64,000 bases of DNA from an uncultured Acetobacteraceae bacterium (GTDB lineage Bacteria; Pseudomonadota; Alphaproteobacteria; Acetobacterales; Acetobacteraceae): positions 62,001 to 126,000 of the forward strand of contig CAITUP010000091.1 in the NCBI GenBank assembly GCA_903895595.1, read 5' to 3'. The position numbers and the translations under genes are program-made. Every line of letters starts with the position of its first letter. Position 1 is the first letter of the stretch. This document shows, piece after piece, positions 15,505 through 27,412 of the stretch. The notes under the pieces are model-generated. The model was not told where the DNA came from. It searched no databases and saw nothing but the letters and a program-made list of their open reading frames with translations.

Positions 15505-15978
15505 ATGCAACGTTATCTGACGATTGGGTGGGAGCGGCTGCATCTGGACGCGCGCGCTCTGGCGACGGCGCTGATGCCGCGGGGCCCGTTCAAAGGCATC
15601 GTCGCGGTCAGCCGCGGCGGCCTGATCCCGGCCGCCATCGTGGCGCGGGAGCTGGATATTCGGCTGGTGGAGAGCGTCTGCGTGGTGACCTACCAGGAGC
15701 AGGCGATGGGCGAACCGGTCGTGATCAAGGCGCCCGCGGTGGCCGGCGACGGCGAGGGATTCCTGGTCATCGACGATCTGACCGACACCGGCACGACCGC
15801 TCGTGTCGTGCGCGGGCTGCTGCCGAAGGCGCATTTCGCTTGCGTTTACGTGAAGCCGGCGGGGCAGGGGCTGGCGGACAGTTATGTCAGCGCGGTGGAG
15901 CAGGATACGTGGATTTTGTTTCCCTGGGACACGGCGCCGCAGTTTATGCCGCCACTGGTGCGGCAGGAGGGAAATTAG
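15505..15978 (+). CDS. gpt: Xanthine phosphoribosyltransferase
   Basis: Salvages xanthine/guanine to the nucleotide using PRPP. 157 residues, close to the E. coli enzyme. 'GIVAVSRGGLIPAAIVAREL' is the N-terminal purine PRTase signature and 'FLVIDDLTDTGTTAR' the PRPP-binding loop; 'TWILFPWD' is the base-recognition C-terminal segment. It starts 2 bp after csaA and its end overlaps the convergent MqsA-type antitoxin gene by 4 bp. Confidence 0.92.
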   Translation: MQRYLTIGWERLHLDARALATALMPRGPFKGIVAVSRGGLIPAAIVARELDIRLVESVCVVTYQEQAMGEPVVIKAPAVAGDGEGFLVIDDLTDTGTTARVVRGLLPKAHFACVYVKPAGQGLADSYVSAVEQDTWILFPWDTAPQFMPPLVRQEGN

Positions 15979-16559
15979 GCGGCTTTCATCCCAGCACCGT
16001 GACGAACAGCCCACACGATCTCCACCGCGCGGGCTGCCAGTCGTCCGGCATCGGGTGAGCCGGTTGCGATGTCCGCCTGGAGCACCTCCGTGGCCAGGCG
16101 GCGGGCATCTTCGTCGATATCGGCCAATATCGCGGCCGCCGCGGGGTTTTCGATCCCGGCCCCTTGCATCAAATCGCGTGCAACGTCCGGGTTGGTAGAC
16201 AATACCCGGATCAGCGTATCCGCTGCCTTGCTTTGAGGCACCTTCCCACGCTCCCACCGTGTCCAGGTCTTGGGACCGACCGACAACATCGCCTCCAGAT
16301 CGGTCTGCCGGAATGCGTATTTGATCCGGATGTTCCGCAATTCCTCGGGGCTGAGCAGTCCGTCCATCTCACGGATTTTGGCGGCGACCGCGCGTTCATG
16401 GCGGGAGGCCTGCTCGCCGACATAGCTGACGGTACCGCATGACCCGCACACCGTCTGGCTGTCCTGAATCGTCGCGGTTTTCTGGCCGTGGCGGAATTCG
16501 AACGGTGCGACCTGTTCGGTTTGCGTCGCATGACCGCATTCAACGCAGATATCAGACAT
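15975..16559 (-). CDS. MqsA-family antitoxin (zinc finger plus XRE-type HTH)
   Basis: 194 residues. The N-terminus carries two CxxC pairs (C5/C8 and C38/C41) expected to hold zinc; residues about 70-120 form a helix-turn-helix ('RQTDLEAMLSVGPKTWTRWE') of the type that binds operator DNA; the last 70 residues are an extra acidic helical tail absent from the 131-residue E. coli MqsA. It overlaps the toxin gene by 8 bp and follows it, the toxin-first order of mqsRA. It should neutralise the toxin and repress the promoter at 16880-16908. Confidence 0.85.
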   Translation of the reverse strand: MSDICVECGHATQTEQVAPFEFRHGQKTATIQDSQTVCGSCGTVSYVGEQASRHERAVAAKIREMDGLLSPEELRNIRIKYAFRQTDLEAMLSVGPKTWTRWERGKVPQSKAADTLIRVLSTNPDVARDLMQGAGIENPAAAAILADIDEDARRLATEVLQADIATGSPDAGRLAARAVEIVWAVRHGAGMKAA

Positions 16560-16872
16560 AGCGCTCGTCCTTTTTGAACGATGTGACGATCAGGCGTTCG
16601 CCGCTGATAAGCAGTTTGATGAACATCCGAGCCCCACAGACGTCGACCCAATAGGAGTAGTAGTCCGACGTGGTCGCCGGATAGTATTTTTCCGTCGGAC
16701 GGGAACGGAAGCAATGCGCCTCACCCAGCTCGTCGGCGATGATTTCCCGTAGATCATCGGTGTCCAATCCATGTTGCCGCAGTTCGAGGAGTACCGGCTG
16801 GAAAAACTCGCAGGCGCGTTCGTCCGCAGCCAAGCGGCGTACTCTCTCAAGCTCATTTGCGGGCTTAACCAC
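16552..16872 (-). CDS. MqsR-family mRNA interferase toxin
   Basis: 106 residues from GTG 16872. The C-terminal half matches the MqsR/RelE-like fold: 'YYPATTSDYYSYWVDVCG' followed by 'MFIKLLISGERLIVTSFKK', paralleling the E. coli pattern of a Y/D-rich strand, 'WQDVY' and a terminal 'VSFK'. MqsR toxins cut mRNA at GCU/GCA sites; cleavage by this protein is inferred. It overlaps its antitoxin gene by 8 bp. No ribosome site precedes the GTG, and the predicted promoter would start transcription within a base or two of it, so a leaderless message is likely. Confidence 0.78.
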   Translation of the reverse strand: MVKPANELERVRRLAADERACEFFQPVLLELRQHGLDTDDLREIIADELGEAHCFRSRPTEKYYPATTSDYYSYWVDVCGARMFIKLLISGERLIVTSFKKDERYV

Positions 16873-19177: not shown

Positions 19178-19969
19178 ATGCACGGGTTTTCGGCGCATAG
19201 CCTGTTGTACTCATTGTCCGGGTTCGTCGTGGGACTGCTGGTCGGGCAAACCGGCGTCGGTGGAGGCGCGCTGATGACGCCGCTGCTGGTGCTGCTTTTC
19301 GGCATTCATCCGGCGGCGGCGGTCGGCACGGACTTGCTCTACGCTTGCGTCACCAAAACCGTGGGCACCGTCGTGCACGGCAAACTCGAAACGGTGGACT
19401 GGCGGATCGTGGGGCGGCTCGCGGCGGGCAGCGTGCCGGCGACGGTTCTGACGCTGGCCGGACTGTCCGGCTCCGACATGATGTCTGGCAGCGGGTCGGG
19501 GCACCGGATCGCGGCGATCCTGGGCGTGTTGCTGGTCCTGACCGCCGTGTCCCTGATTTTCCGCCAGCGGGTGCGAGGACTGGCCATCCGTCTGGCCGAA
19601 GGTCCCCTGCTGCGGCACACCGCCGCGCTGACCGTCGGGACGGGTGCGTTGTTGGGCTTCCTCGTCACCATCTCCTCCGTCGGTGCCGGAGCGCTCGGCG
19701 TCACCGCGCTGCTGCTGCTGTATCCGCGGCTGCCGACACCGACGATCGTCGGGTCCGACATCGCCCACGCCGTGCCGCTGACGCTGGTCGCGGGGTTGGG
19801 GCACTGGTGGCTGGGGTCTGTGGATGGCGTGTTGTTGGTGTCGCTGCTGCTGGGGTCGGTGCCGGGGGTGATCGTCGGCAGTTTCCTGTCCGTCCGGCTG
19901 CCCGATGTCGTGCTGCGGCTGACGCTGGCCGCGGTGTTGGCGGTGGTGGGGATACGACTGATTTTTTAA
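19178..19969 (+). CDS. TauE/SafE-family sulfite/organosulfur exporter
   Basis: 263-residue membrane protein with about seven to eight predicted transmembrane helices and the two TauE repeats: 'GQTGVGGGALMTPLLVLLFG' near residue 26 and its counterpart 'SSVGAGALGVTALLLLYP' near residue 168. The family exports sulfite, sulfoacetate and related anions. Position directly behind the rhodanese gene supports a sulfur role. The start ATG 19178 is one of two close ATG codons. The stop lies in the stem of a hairpin at 19968-20004. Confidence 0.88.
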   Translation: MHGFSAHSLLYSLSGFVVGLLVGQTGVGGGALMTPLLVLLFGIHPAAAVGTDLLYACVTKTVGTVVHGKLETVDWRIVGRLAAGSVPATVLTLAGLSGSDMMSGSGSGHRIAAILGVLLVLTAVSLIFRQRVRGLAIRLAEGPLLRHTAALTVGTGALLGFLVTISSVGAGALGVTALLLLYPRLPTPTIVGSDIAHAVPLTLVAGLGHWWLGSVDGVLLVSLLLGSVPGVIVGSFLSVRLPDVVLRLTLAAVLAVVGIRLIF

Positions 19970-20004
19970 TCGGGTCGGTGGCGGTTCGCCGTCGCTGCCC
20001 GATT
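19968..20004 (+). terminator. Hairpin between TauE gene and the acidic-partner gene
   Basis: AATCGGG (19968-19974) pairs with CCCGATT (19998-20004) around an internally structured GC-rich loop, spanning the TauE stop codon. No T-run follows on the plus strand, so it is not a canonical intrinsic terminator. It lies between two convergent genes and may limit read-through in either direction. Confidence 0.3.
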
Positions 20005-20039
20005 ATAGGGACAAACGCCGGGGGACGCCGACCCGGCTT

Positions 20040-20312
20040 TCACTCGGCGGCGACTGCTTCACGCCCCTCCAACACCGCGTTCGGTTCCAGGCACCAGGTT
20101 AATTGTTCGGTATCCAGCGCCATTCCGGTTAATGGCTCCATCCGGTGCACCATCTCATCCGTAAGCGGCCAGTCGTGGTAGAATGCCGCCATCTCCGGCG
20201 ACAGGGCCGCGATTTCCATTGCGGCGGCAACGACCGCATCTTCCAGCGCATGAAACCGGACCGCGTAATCGGTCTGCTTGTCGTAGCCAACGAGAGAGTA
20301 AGTCACTTTCAT
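20040..20312 (-). CDS. Acidic partner of the colicin E3-type toxin (candidate immunity/antitoxin)
   Basis: 90 residues with 16 acidic and only 5 Lys/Arg residues (net about -11), no membrane segment. It does not resemble the colicin E3 immunity protein in sequence, and I cannot name the family. Recognisable features are 'YSLVGYDKQTDYAVR' near the start and 'FYHDWPLTDEM' in the middle. Its ATG overlaps the stop of the upstream RNase gene by 4 bp (ATGA), so the two are translationally coupled. A strongly acidic small protein encoded directly after a basic ribonuclease is the standard pattern for an inhibitor. Function is inferred from position and charge. Confidence 0.7.
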   Translation of the reverse strand: MKVTYSLVGYDKQTDYAVRFHALEDAVVAAAMEIAALSPEMAAFYHDWPLTDEMVHRMEPLTGMALDTEQLTWCLEPNAVLEGREAVAAE

Positions 20313-20599
20313 GGTTCTACCCTGCGTCCGGGAACTGCCGCACCGATCTGCCGGCCGGTATCGGGGTCGTATTCGCCCACATGCCGGCCGCGTGCATCAT
20401 ACGCTTCCACTGTGCCGTGAAGATAGTTCCATTCCAGGATGCGACCATCTCGCAGCACCCATCGGCGGCGGATACCGGCGGGATACCGGGTCTTCGACCG
20501 TACCTTTTTGGCATCCGGCCAAGGCAGCAAAAACGAGGGGGGACTGTGGTGAATGGCACCGCTCCATCGGATCGAACACCCCCACGATACGCCCCACAA
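20309..20599 (-). CDS. Stand-alone colicin E3/cloacin-type ribonuclease domain
   Basis: 96 residues from TTG 20599 (no ATG or GTG in frame; start uncertain). Residues 44-95 follow the colicin E3 rRNase domain closely: 'RILEWNYLHGTVEAYD', 'GRHVGEYDPDTGRQI', ending 'GRRVEP'. That domain cuts 16S rRNA near the A site. Colicin E3 uses an Asp, a His and a Glu spaced D-x2-H-x3-E; here His61 and Glu65 are kept but the Asp is Asn58 (codon AAC, complement of 20426-20428), which could weaken or alter activity. There is no translocation or receptor domain, so this is an intracellular toxin or a remnant. Net charge is about +7, opposite to its overlapping partner. Confidence 0.75.
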   Translation of the reverse strand: MWGVSWGCSIRWSGAIHHSPPSFLLPWPDAKKVRSKTRYPAGIRRRWVLRDGRILEWNYLHGTVEAYDARGRHVGEYDPDTGRQIGAAVPGRRVEP

Positions 20600-20676
20600 G
20601 TTAAGGAACCGTTAACGCCCCAGCGAATCCGTCACCCCCGCTTGCATTCCGCGCTGCAACATCCAAACTCGCTCCC

Positions 20677-23193
20677 ATGATCGGTCCCGACTCCGGTTTT
20701 CCCGCGCGCGTCCGAGCCGTCCTCGGCCCCACGAACACGGGTAAGACGCACCTCGCCATCGAACGCATGCTCGCGCATGCGTCGGGGATCATCGGCTTTC
20801 CCCTCCGCCTTCTGGCGCGGGAGAATTACGACCGCATGGTCGCCCAGAAAGGCGTCAAAAACGTCGCGCTGATCACGGGCGAGGAGAAAATCGTTCCCCC
20901 TGACGCCAAATGGTTCTCCTGCACGGTGGAGGCCATGCCGCTCGACCGACGGACGGAGTTCGTGGCGGTGGACGAGATCCAGCTCTGCGCCGACCCCGAC
21001 CGCGGCCACGTCTTCACCGAACGCCTGCTGCACGCGCGCGGCATGGTGGAGACGATGTTCCTCGGCGCCGAGACCATTCGCCCGCTGCTGCAACGCCTGG
21101 TGCCGAACGCGACGGTGGAAACCCGACCGCGTTTGTCGCAGCTGACTTACGCCGGTCCGGCCAAGCTGGTGCGATTGCCGCCGCGCAGCGCCGTCGTCGC
21201 GTTCTCGGCGCAGGAGGTCTACGCCATCGCCGAACTGATCCGCCGCCGCAGGGGCGGCTGCGCGGTCGTGATGGGTCGCCTGTCTCCCCGCACCCGCAAC
21301 GCCCAGGTGGCGCTGTATCAGGACAAGGAGGTCGACTTCCTGGTCGCGACCGACGCGATCGGCATGGGCCTGAACATGAACGTCGACCACGTCGCGTTCG
21401 CCGGCCTCGGCAAATTCGACGGCCATCGCCCGCGCCGCCTGACATCGGCGGAAATGGGTCAGATCGCGGGTCGCGCCGGCCGCGGCATGCGGGACGGCAC
21501 CTTCGGCACGACGACGGAATGCAAGCCGATCCCCGAGGAAGCGGTCAGCGCCATCGAATCTCACACCTTCGACGCGCTGGAACAGCTCTGCTGGCGCAAC
21601 AACGCGCTGGACTTCACCCATATCGACGGGCTGCTTGCCTCGTTGCAGGAACCGGCGCCGAGGGCCGGGCTCGTGAAGGGCAATGACGCGTCGGACCTCG
21701 AAACGCTGATGGCGCTGGCCCGCGAACCGGAAATCCGCGACATGGCGCGCGGCAGAGGTCGCGTAAGGCTGCTGTGGGAAGCCTGCCAAATCCCCGATTT
21801 CCGCAAACTGACGGACGAGACCCACACCCGCCTCTGCGCCCGCATCTTCGGCCACATCGTCAAGGACAAGCGCCTGCCGACCGACTGGCTCGCCGGCCAG
21901 ATCGCCGCGCTCGACAGGGTGGAAGGCGATATCGACACCCTCATGCAGCGCCTGTCCGGCGTGCGCATCTGGTCCTACATCGCCGCCCGCGCCGACTGGG
22001 TCAAAGACGCCGAGCATTGGCAAGGCAAGGCGCGCGAAGTCGAGGACAAGCTGTCCGATGTTCTCCACGAACGCCTGACCACCCGATTCGTCGATCGCCG
22101 CTCCACCCATTTGATGCGCCGCCTGGATGCCACCGACGGGCAGGACCTGCTGTCCGCCGTCACCCGGCGCGGCGAAGTCGTCGTCGAAGGCCATCAGGTC
22201 GGCGTGCTGGAAGGTTTTTCGTTCGCGCCCGACCCCGCCGCCGAGGGGGACGAGAAGAAGCTGGTCCTGCGCGCCGCCCGCCGCGCCTTACGGGAAGAAA
22301 TGCCCCGCCGCGTGGCGGTGCTGGAGGCCGAACCGGACGCCGCGTTTAGCCTGACGCCCACCCACCGCATCCTCTGGGACAACGCCCCGGTCGCCCGCGT
22401 CGTCGGCGGCCCGACGGCGCTGTCTCCTCGGGTGCAGATTTTGGACAGCGAGTTCCTCGACGGCGCCCAGCGGGAACGGCTGCGGGTGCGGCTGCAACGC
22501 TTTCTGGATACGCTGATCCGCACCGACCTCGCGCCCTTGTTCGCGGCCGCCAATGCCGCCGAGAGCATTCCCGGCGCCCGCGGCCCGCTGCATCGCCTGC
22601 GGGAATCGCTGGGGCTCGTGCCCGGCGTGGATGAGGAAACCCTGGCCCCTGAACTGCGGGTCCGCCTGAAAGCCATCGGCGTGCGGTCCGGCCGTTTCGC
22701 GCTGTTCCTGCCGGCGGTGATGAAGCCTCGGGCAGCGGCGTTGCGGGCGCGGTTATGGGCGATCCGGCACGGGTTCGCGACGCCGGCCTTGCCGGATGTC
22801 AGCGCCGTATCGCTGCCCGTCGCGACCGACTGGCCGCCGGGTTTCGCCGCCGCGATGGGGTGGATCGAGGCCGGGCCGGTGCTGCTGCGCGTCGATATCG
22901 CCGAACGCGTGGCGGGCGAGCTTGGCTATGCCACCCGCAAAGGCCCGACTCTGGTGCCGCTGGGCTTGGCCTCCCGGTTCGCGGTGAAAGCCGACGCGGT
23001 ACCGGCGGTGCTGCGCGGCCTCGGGTTCCGCACGATCCCCGGCGGTGGGCTGGAGGCCGATGCTTTCGGACCGCCGGCCCCACCGATGCTGATGCCGCTT
23101 CGCCGCCGCCGCACGGTGCCTATCCCCGAACAGGCGCAACCCACCCCCGTGCCGTTCGGCCCCTTCGCGGCCCTTGCCGCACTGAAGCGCTAG
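20677..23193 (+). CDS. SUV3/MgpS-like ATP-dependent RNA/DNA helicase
   Basis: 838-residue superfamily 2 helicase. Walker A is 'LGPTNTGKTHLA' (residues 16-27), Walker B 'VDEIQLC' (DEIQ type), motif V 'ATDAIGMGLNM' and motif VI 'QIAGRAGRG'. The middle part resembles the SUV3 C-terminal domain, and the last 250 residues are an alphaproteobacterial extension. Mitochondrial SUV3 works in RNA turnover; a similar role here is inference. The promoter region (20600-20676) is shared with the divergent toxin gene. It lies 6 bp before the S4-domain gene. Confidence 0.9.
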   Translation: MIGPDSGFPARVRAVLGPTNTGKTHLAIERMLAHASGIIGFPLRLLARENYDRMVAQKGVKNVALITGEEKIVPPDAKWFSCTVEAMPLDRRTEFVAVDEIQLCADPDRGHVFTERLLHARGMVETMFLGAETIRPLLQRLVPNATVETRPRLSQLTYAGPAKLVRLPPRSAVVAFSAQEVYAIAELIRRRRGGCAVVMGRLSPRTRNAQVALYQDKEVDFLVATDAIGMGLNMNVDHVAFAGLGKFDGHRPRRLTSAEMGQIAGRAGRGMRDGTFGTTTECKPIPEEAVSAIESHTFDALEQLCWRNNALDFTHIDGLLASLQEPAPRAGLVKGNDASDLETLMALAREPEIRDMARGRGRVRLLWEACQIPDFRKLTDETHTRLCARIFGHIVKDKRLPTDWLAGQIAALDRVEGDIDTLMQRLSGVRIWSYIAARADWVKDAEHWQGKAREVEDKLSDVLHERLTTRFVDRRSTHLMRRLDATDGQDLLSAVTRRGEVVVEGHQVGVLEGFSFAPDPAAEGDEKKLVLRAARRALREEMPRRVAVLEAEPDAAFSLTPTHRILWDNAPVARVVGGPTALSPRVQILDSEFLDGAQRERLRVRLQRFLDTLIRTDLAPLFAAANAAESIPGARGPLHRLRESLGLVPGVDEETLAPELRVRLKAIGVRSGRFALFLPAVMKPRAAALRARLWAIRHGFATPALPDVSAVSLPVATDWPPGFAAAMGWIEAGPVLLRVDIAERVAGELGYATRKGPTLVPLGLASRFAVKADAVPAVLRGLGFRTIPGGGLEADAFGPPAPPMLMPLRRRRTVPIPEQAQPTPVPFGPFAALAALKR

Positions 23194-26618: not shown

Positions 26619-27188
26619 TTACGCAAGCAGGATGTCCAGAATCACCCGCTCCATGTCGTCGTACGCCGCTCGGCGGAAGCTGCTGATCGAGGCTTGGTTC
26701 CATGCTCGGGGATCGATGGCGCCGAGATCGATGCGATGCCCTGCTTTATCGGCCATGCCGACGAGGAAGGCCCGCAAGGTCCGCCCATTGCCCTCCCGGA
26801 AGGGATGGATCGCATTCAGCTCGCATACATGTTCGGCCGAACGGTTGGCGAAATTCTGGCGGTTCAGGCCTTTGAGGCCGTTTTCCGCCCTGATGGCGGC
26901 GAAGCGCTGGTCCATCTGCGACGCGATATGCGGCACCAGACAGAACATATCGTTGCCTTTGGCGATGTTGACGGTGCGGTAGCGGCCGGCCCAGGGATAG
27001 AGGTCCTGGAACAAATAGCGGTGAATCTGGCGGTAACCGATAGCGGTCATGGCGAAGCGGCGCGGAAGGGTTTCCAGCCGGTTTGTGGTCAACAACCGCT
27101 CGTAATCCTCGAGTTCGTCGCGGTCGCGAATATCCAGGAGGTTCACGAGCGTGCCGGTGCCAGGGTAGACGGAACTGTCGTCCGTCAC
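26619..27188 (-). CDS. Fic-domain AMP-transferase toxin (VbhT/FicT type)
   Basis: 189 residues from GTG 27188. The Fic active-site loop is intact: 'HPFREGNGRTLR' (consensus HPFx[D/E]GNGRxxR), preceded by 'YPWAGRYRTVNIAKGNDMF', the flap region. FicT toxins AMPylate DNA gyrase and topoisomerase IV. The GTG start overlaps the antitoxin stop by 4 bp (GTGA); an upstream extension would run antisense-like through the antitoxin frame. Being antitoxin-first and coupled, it follows the FicA-FicT layout. Target here is inferred from the family. Confidence 0.9.
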   Translation of the reverse strand: MTDDSSVYPGTGTLVNLLDIRDRDELEDYERLLTTNRLETLPRRFAMTAIGYRQIHRYLFQDLYPWAGRYRTVNIAKGNDMFCLVPHIASQMDQRFAAIRAENGLKGLNRQNFANRSAEHVCELNAIHPFREGNGRTLRAFLVGMADKAGHRIDLGAIDPRAWNQASISSFRRAAYDDMERVILDILLA

Positions 27189-27412
27189 TCCGCGGCGAGC
27201 GCCTTTGCCGCCTTTCGGGCGTGAACATACGCGAGGATTCGATCCCGGCGCTGGTCCGCCGTCAGCCGTTCCCGGTCGAACTGCTCGAACAGCGCCTCTT
27301 CTTCGGCCGTCAGGACCATCCCCTCGCACGCCAAAGACGCCCGGACTCCCGGGCGCCGGCGGCGAATTTCGGCGATCTCATCGTCTGTCAGCCGGTCGGG
27401 GACCTGGGTCAT
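27185..27412 (-). CDS. VbhA/FicA-type antitoxin
   Basis: 75 residues from ATG 27412 (a longer frame reaches 27454 but has no better start). It carries the inhibitory helix motif [S/T]xxxE[G/N] as 'SLACEG', whose Glu blocks ATP positioning in the Fic active site, followed by the typical 'LTADQRRDRILAYVHARK' tail. It overlaps the Fic gene by 4 bp. Class I Fic regulation (separate antitoxin) is therefore predicted. Confidence 0.85.
   Translation of the reverse strand: MTQVPDRLTDDEIAEIRRRRPGVRASLACEGMVLTAEEEALFEQFDRERLTADQRRDRILAYVHARKAAKALAAE

What the first reader, a model, noticed from the sequence alone, without database searches (positions are those of the whole stretch)
20040..20599. Stand-alone colicin E3-type rRNase coupled to a very acidic partner, with an Asp-to-Asn active-site change
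Seen: a 96-residue basic protein whose second half follows the colicin E3 rRNase domain ('LEWNYLHGTVEAYD', 'GEYDPDTGRQ'), overlapping by ATGA a 90-residue protein of net charge about -11. Known: colicin E3 cuts 16S rRNA with an Asp-His-Glu set spaced D-x2-H-x3-E and is held by a small acidic immunity protein. Here His61 and Glu65 remain, Asp is Asn58, and there are no import domains. Inference: a chromosomal toxin-antitoxin or defence module derived from a bacteriocin nuclease, with a partner unlike the E3 immunity protein; or a disarmed relic.
Basis: partly seen in the sequence, partly recalled or inferred. Interest (0 to 1): 0.8.

Follow-up and report, generated by a model that had tools for sequence, protein, structure and literature searches.

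The report
Stand-alone colicin-E3-type toxin with antidote
A bacterial chromosome carries a small toxin domain of the ribosome-cutting colicin E3 type and its likely antidote as a self-contained gene pair, without the parts a bacteriocin needs to enter other cells, and the toxin has an unusual, apparently old change at a key active-site position.

Summary
The 96-codon minus-strand ORF (20599-20309) is a stand-alone E3-type rRNase domain (PF09000, E 2.3e-20), overlapped by ATGA with a 90-residue acidic protein. The partner is not foreign to the E3 system: it is of the DUF7683 type found behind E3 domains in several phyla, whose profile is remotely related to the colicin E3 immunity protein. The cassette also ends long bacteriocin-like frames in Pseudomonas and enterics and stands alone in cyanobacteria and Acetobacteraceae. 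Asn at the catalytic Asp is not general: 102 of 105 scored sequences have Asp; Asn occurs only here and in a sister copy in the same genome. The two Asn copies differ by saturated synonymous but few amino-acid changes, so the Asn form was probably kept under selection. In 19 genus loci, toxin damaged with partner open occurs 9 times, the reverse 0, as expected for poison and antidote. Best reading: a toxin-antidote (TA-like) module, a new variant of a known kind. Whether the Asn toxin cuts rRNA is undecided.

The parts
20309..20599 (-). stand-alone E3-type rRNase-like toxin, 96 codons from TTG (start uncertain)
   Evidence: PF09000 E 2.3e-20; colicin E3 phmmer E 1.3e-8; keeps 21 of 24 columns that are at least 90% conserved in A3
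20040..20312 (-). acidic partner (net -11), DUF7683-type, predicted antidote/immunity protein
   Evidence: DUF7683 16.7 bits, below cut-off 27; partners of two related pairs 40.9 and 42.1 bits; profile relation to colicin E3 immunity
20309..20312 (-). ATGA overlap of toxin stop and partner start
   Evidence: sequence; same overlap in many relatives
20426..20428 (-). codon AAC = Asn58, at the position of catalytic Asp (colicin E3 D510 / D55)
   Evidence: alignments; tally
20417..20419 (-). His61 codon (colicin E3 H513 / H58 position), conserved
20405..20407 (-). Glu65 codon (colicin E3 E517 / E62 position), conserved
20600..20676 (.). 77-bp gap to the divergent SUV3-type helicase gene; DNA similarity to the helicase region of 28 other genus genomes ends here (at 20629-20641 in 27, at 20591 in one)

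Best explanation
A chromosomal, two-gene toxin-antidote module. The toxin is the bare C-terminal rRNase domain known from colicin E3 and pyocin S6, made inside the cell without translocation or receptor domains. The partner is a DUF7683-type protein, remote kin of the E3 immunity protein, that binds and blocks it. [quoted passage not shown] Shown here: homology, pairing, recurrence, stand-alone status, rarity and probable age of the Asn, and biased loss of the toxin. Inferred: expression, binding, rRNA cleavage, and intracellular rather than secreted action. The Asn at the Asp position is an old, lineage-specific change retained under constraint; most likely the toxin keeps an altered or slower activity, but this is the least certain step.
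For: E3 domain. Partner type and relation to E3 immunity. Pair recurs across phyla, at the end of long bacteriocin-like frames and alone in open frames of 80-140 codons. Size labels cluster on the tree: 17 label changes against a shuffled mean of 37.7, 0 of 200 as low (near-copies help this). All 5 DUF7683 matches found in 396 Pseudomonadota genomes begin within 35 bases of a PF09000 match (the window's own partner is too weak to be among the 5). In 19 hand-listed genus loci: partner open with toxin broken, absent or Asp replaced by Ala 9, reverse 0 (sign test 0.0039). Three related cyanobacterial stand-alone toxins compare at pN/pS 0.16-0.27. Own genome has no VipB (T6SS) match. The pyocin S6 immunity gene, with the same ATGA layout and borderline similarity to Im3, was shown to protect (PMC4905994, passages).
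Against: The catalytic Asp is essential where tested: D533A in pyocin S6 lost activity and D510 is listed as essential in colicin E3 (PMC4905994 passages), so the window toxin may be dead. The window partner itself is below the DUF7683 cut-off and neither protein matches NCBIfam. No promoter-like match was found, the start is TTG without an obvious ribosome-binding site, and no DNA-binding family matches the partner, unlike many type II antitoxins. E3 domains also pair with other partner types (cloacin-type, DUF6980-type, and an unnamed type). Two of the four intact Asp-bearing pairs in the genus (G027, G007) are in genomes that do have T6SS sheath genes, so export is not excluded. Nothing was tested in cells, and no structure could be predicted.
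Confidence: 0.7

Rival explanations
1. Disarmed pair: the Asn toxin is catalytically dead and only the antidote matters, kept as an orphan immunity gene against incoming E3-type toxins or as an anti-addiction leftover.
For: Asp-to-Ala at this position kills pyocin S6 (passages); in the 19 genus loci 13 toxins are broken or absent and 14 partners open; a toxin remnant beside an intact, protective immunity gene is documented in P. aeruginosa PAO1 (PMC4905994 passages); weak TTG start; the sister Asn copy C169 is itself truncated.
Against: The two Asn copies are sisters with the Asn column left out (99/95 with both proteins, 98/95 partner alone, but only 85/77 toxin alone) and their toxins differ by pS 0.71 but pN 0.13 (Fisher 8e-10); the window toxin keeps 21 of 24 near-invariant columns.
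Confidence: 0.3
2. Non-catalytic function: the Asn toxin no longer cuts but is kept for binding the partner (decoy or regulator of other antidotes in the same genome).
For: Constraint on the toxin despite loss of the Asp; the own genome has seven E3-type matches.
Against: No direct evidence; the intact partner of the other whole pair in this genome (C72) is only 29% identical to the window partner, so cross-binding is doubtful.
Confidence: 0.15
3. Delivered effector or orphan bacteriocin tail (T6SS, Rhs, CDI cargo or a recombination cassette) rather than an intracellular toxin-antitoxin.
For: The same domain is the C-terminus of bacteriocin-like and other long proteins; stand-alone cassettes near polymorphic toxins are a known theme (PMC3482391 passages); T6SS sheath genes exist in 3 of 5 genus genomes searched, two of them with intact pairs.
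Against: No VipB match in the window's genome or in G032, which has an intact pair; the only RHS matches in the own genome are two in one frame on another contig; the pair lies between a TauE-type exporter gene and a helicase gene with no toxin gene upstream. CDI genes were not searched for.
Confidence: 0.12

Closest known systems
Pyocin S6 rRNase domain and its immunity gene (PMC4905994, passages)
   Same: PF09000 domain; ATGA overlap; small immunity protein with only borderline similarity to the colicin E3 one; toxin remnants with intact immunity genes
   Different: Pyocin S6 is a 571-aa bacteriocin with import domains and Asp533; here the bare domain with Asn. The S6 immunity sequence itself was not fetched, so its DUF7683 membership is inferred from the 74-77-residue partners of the Pseudomonas loci L051-L075
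Colicin E3 / Im3 (1e44, 1jch, 4udm)
   Same: Same rRNase domain family; partner remotely related to Im3
   Different: No T or R domains; Asn for Asp; partner only remotely similar
Tox-ColE3 of polymorphic toxin systems (PMC3482391, passages)
   Same: Same toxin domain; stand-alone cassettes are described there as a general theme
   Different: That table lists Imm-Cloacin and Imm45 as partners and, unlike Tox-RES and Ntox24, does not mark Tox-ColE3 as found in toxin-antitoxin systems

Membership tests
PF09000 Cytotoxic (E3 rRNase) | profile match above the curated cut-off | tested here: met
   73.2 bits against 22
PF09000 Cytotoxic (E3 rRNase) | catalytic Asp-x2-His-x3-Glu | tested here: not met
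   Asn58, His61, Glu65: Asp replaced. It is a family member by sequence; that it is an active E3 rRNase is not claimed
PF09000 Cytotoxic (E3 rRNase) | second conserved His (E3 H72, PMC3482391) | tested here: met
   His73
[quoted passage not shown]
   needs expression and rRNA end mapping
Nuclease bacteriocin (colicin/S-type pyocin) | translocation and receptor domains N-terminal to the nuclease | tested here: not met
   open frame 100 codons, in-frame TAA upstream
DUF7683 (PF24731) | profile match above the curated cut-off | tested here: inconclusive
   window copy 16.7 bits against 27; four related partners 24.4, 24.1, 40.9 and 42.1 bits
Cloacin_immun (PF03513) | profile match above the cut-off | tested here: not met
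   no match of the window partner at E<=1; 1 of 34 partners weakly, E 0.01; remote relation only at profile level
Type II toxin-antitoxin | small adjacent toxin and antitoxin genes in one operon | tested here: met
   ATGA overlap, 96 and 90 codons; co-transcription itself not tested
Type II toxin-antitoxin | antitoxin neutralises the toxin in the same cell | not testable with these tools
   indirect support only: 9 to 0 bias in gene loss
Type II toxin-antitoxin | DNA-binding antitoxin that represses the operon (common, not universal; recalled) | tested here: not met
   no DNA-binding family match in the window partner at E<=1

The most novel reading that the evidence does not exclude
A lineage of stand-alone E3-fold toxins that kept working, under selection, after replacing the supposedly essential catalytic Asp by Asn, showing that the E3 active site can be rewired or retuned when the toxin acts inside its own cell with a dedicated antidote.
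Probability: 0.35. Interest if true: 0.6.

Novelty: new variant of a known kind. Interest (0 to 1): 0.48.

Why it matters
It shows that the colicin E3 toxin-immunity cassette also lives as a self-contained chromosomal module in Acetobacteraceae and cyanobacteria, a form that the nuclease-bacteriocin survey read here would have discarded (it dropped ORFs under 350 residues; PMC5536347 passages). It gives the unnamed family DUF7683 a likely role as E3-toxin antidote. It also offers natural Asp and Asn copies in one genome for testing how the E3 active site works.

Tried and rejected
Asn as a general family feature: rejected (102 Asp, 2 Asn, 1 Ala of 105 scored; 6 further rows gapped). Partner as an unrelated acidic protein: rejected. 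Known anti-phage defence pair: no PADLOC match for either protein at E<=0.01. Conserved place in the genus: rejected. The helicase is in 29 of 33 genomes, but neither pair nor TauE was found upstream in the 28 others; in five of those less than 1 kb upstream was available (L096, L102, L116, L117, L121) and about 1.5 kb in the rest, so absence is limited to that. T6SS delivery in this genome: no VipB match. Structure prediction and fold search could not be used.

Limits: the 19-locus genus list was put together and scored by hand; weak hits (G028:C46, G026:C85, G027:C98, G011:C158, G011:C424, G029:C189:5547-5684) were not examined. Three of the nine discordant loci (G023:C80, G026:C775, G024:C134) came in through the partner search; without them it is 6 to 0, p 0.031. 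Draft genomes may carry false stops. Rows dropped: A3 holds the window and 35 of the 44 loci (nine near-copies left out: L052, L060, L063, L078, L080, L082, L083, L087, L089); A4 holds the window and 33 (those nine, and L092 and L093, whose partners looked to be of other types, left out; L058 and L069 partners cut to the domain). The Asn constraint rests on 44 codons with saturated synonymous sites; toxin alone supports the sister pair only at 85/77. In the tree there are few columns, near-copies, and short rows labelled stand-alone that may be truncated pieces.

Full report
What is there. The window comes from a draft genome of 5.46 Mb in 170 contigs. On the minus strand a 96-codon ORF (20599-20309, TTG start) overlaps by ATGA a 90-codon ORF (20312-20040). 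Upstream, divergently, begins a SUV3-type helicase gene at 20677; downstream, convergently, lies a TauE-type exporter gene. No promoter-like or terminator-like match was found at 19900-20800.

The toxin. It matches PF09000 with 73.2 bits (cut-off 22) over residues 20-95 and profile positions 3-80 of 80, and colicin E3 chains at E 1.3e-8. There is no import domain: an in-frame TAA precedes the ORF. It keeps 21 of the 24 columns that are at least 90% conserved among the 35 other sequences of A3; it departs at residues 26, 41 and 58. His61, Glu65 and the second His (73) are kept.

The partner. The window copy scores 16.7 bits to DUF7683, below the cut-off of 27. Four related partners score 24.4, 24.1, 40.9 and 42.1 bits, and 33 of the 34 partners in A4 match DUF7683 at E<=0.1. 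The A4 profile finds the colicin E3 immunity protein first in the PDB (1e44_A E 0.003, 1jch_B E 0.0035, over nearly the full length; next hit 0.049). Profile-profile comparison with five cloacin-type immunity proteins (four annotated as such; the fifth is the L092 partner) gives 92.3%, E 5.5e-7. So the partner type is remote kin of the E3 immunity protein, not an unrelated acidic protein. No paper in the held library names DUF7683.

Recurrence. A scan of genome contigs gave 44 loci, all read. In Pseudomonas and enterics the domain mostly ends open frames of 234-541 codons, usually with a DUF7683-type gene behind by ATGA. In cyanobacteria (L066, L068, L069, L071, L072, L084, L085), Acetobacteraceae and one alphaproteobacterium (L079) it stands alone in open frames of 80-140 codons, leaving out the broken copies L081 and L091. 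In the cyanobacteria, judged by eye from translations, the neighbours are ordinary genes. Three related cyanobacterial toxins compare at pN/pS 0.16-0.27. Of 34 viral-contig loci twelve were looked at; in four (L152, L153, L155, L156) the partner looks DUF7683-like, and L152 and L153 are short (125-codon frame). Other E3 domains pair with other partners: cloacin-type, DUF6980-type, and an unnamed type. Stand-alone and long forms cluster on a tree of 101 sequences (17 changes; shuffled mean 37.7; 0 of 200 as low), with few columns and 50 of 98 inner branches open. In Pseudomonadota the families are rare: PF09000 in 6 of 398 genomes, DUF7683 in 3 of 396, own genome included. In the window's family 7 of 299 genomes matched A1 at E<=1e-6.

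The Asn. Among 111 distinct E3-domain sequences in the window and loci held, the Asp position reads Asp 102, Asn 2, Ala 1, gap 6. The two Asn are the window copy and G000:C169 in the same genome. C169 has lost the N-terminal half of the toxin, and its partner has a deletion and a changed end. With the Asn/Asp column left out, the two are sisters: 99/95 with toxin plus partner, 98/95 with partner alone, 85/77 with toxin alone (98/96, which held one faulty row). Their 44 shared toxin codons differ at pS 0.71 and pN 0.13, their partners (55 codons) at pS 0.67 and pN 0.30 (Fisher for the toxin 8e-10). Helicase pS between this genome and eight relatives is 0.41-0.56. So the Asn most likely predates an old split and the domain stayed constrained afterwards; two separate changes to Asn are less likely but not excluded. 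This speaks against fresh damage. It does not show activity: Asp-to-Ala in pyocin S6 abolished killing, and colicin E3 D510, H513 and E517 are listed as essential (PMC4905994, passages). No test of Asn was seen; Walker et al. 2004 was not held.

Gene loss. Nineteen loci of this type in the genus (33 genomes) were listed by hand and scored. The toxin domain is open over its length in 6 (four with Asp, the window with Asn, one with Ala); the partner is open in 14. Toxin broken, absent or Ala with partner open: 9. Reverse: 0. Both broken: 5. Both open: 5, window included. Sign test 0.0039; leaving out three loci that came in through the partner search, 0.031. Losing the poison first is what an antidote relation predicts; the same picture, toxin remnant plus working immunity gene, is described for PAO1 (PMC4905994, passages).

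Mechanism. I commit to an intracellular toxin-antidote module working like a toxin-antitoxin pair, toxin cutting 16S rRNA and partner blocking it. Cleavage, binding and expression are inferred from the families. Delivery by T6SS is unlikely in this genome (no VipB match in G000 or G032), though G027 and G007, which have intact pairs, do have sheath genes.

Known or new. The toxin family, its immunity principle and stand-alone cassettes in general are known (PMC3482391 passages; PMC9990079 passages). The paper searches listed none that I recognised, from titles and abstract starts, as describing stand-alone E3 toxin-antitoxin pairs; passages of six papers were read (searches cover seven, PMC13284704 and PMC5264503 and PMC2615495 among them). 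The nuclease-bacteriocin survey dropped ORFs under 350 residues (PMC5536347, passages). I file it as a new variant of a known kind.

Noticed in passing
G000:C86:254-1081, G000:C136:33288-33449, G024:C16:20644-26591, G005:C110:93074-94960, G009:C112:16929-17789, L093: A second family of stand-alone E3-type domains (about 80-95 aa, 'TWDSLHGEIE' type) with a partner of about 110-120 aa ('WHE..FLG.T..EY') that has no Pfam match in the two members tested (one typed with a one-letter slip) and no PDB match for an eight-row profile; often several copies near each other, also in Mycolicibacterium (L093).
   Followed up: partly
window 15975-16872 (-): An MqsA-like antitoxin gene (PF15731, 43.6 bits) overlapping an MqsR-like toxin gene (PF15723, 18.0 bits, below its cut-off of 26.2) about 3.2 kb from the pair: a second candidate toxin-antitoxin pair.
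   Followed up: partly
window 26619-27329 (-): A Fic/DOC protein (PF02661) that also matches the PADLOC candidate family PDC-S04, E 2.8e-63.
   Followed up: no
L014, L019, L030: E3-type domains at the end of long frames in other class members with a cysteine-bearing partner; the L019 partner matches DUF6980, 42.4 bits, a further candidate immunity family for E3 domains.
   Followed up: no
window 20552-20565 (-): Codon 16 of the toxin frame is ATT with GGAG seven bases upstream; a start there would give an 81-residue protein of the size of the cyanobacterial stand-alone toxins. Speculative.
   Followed up: no
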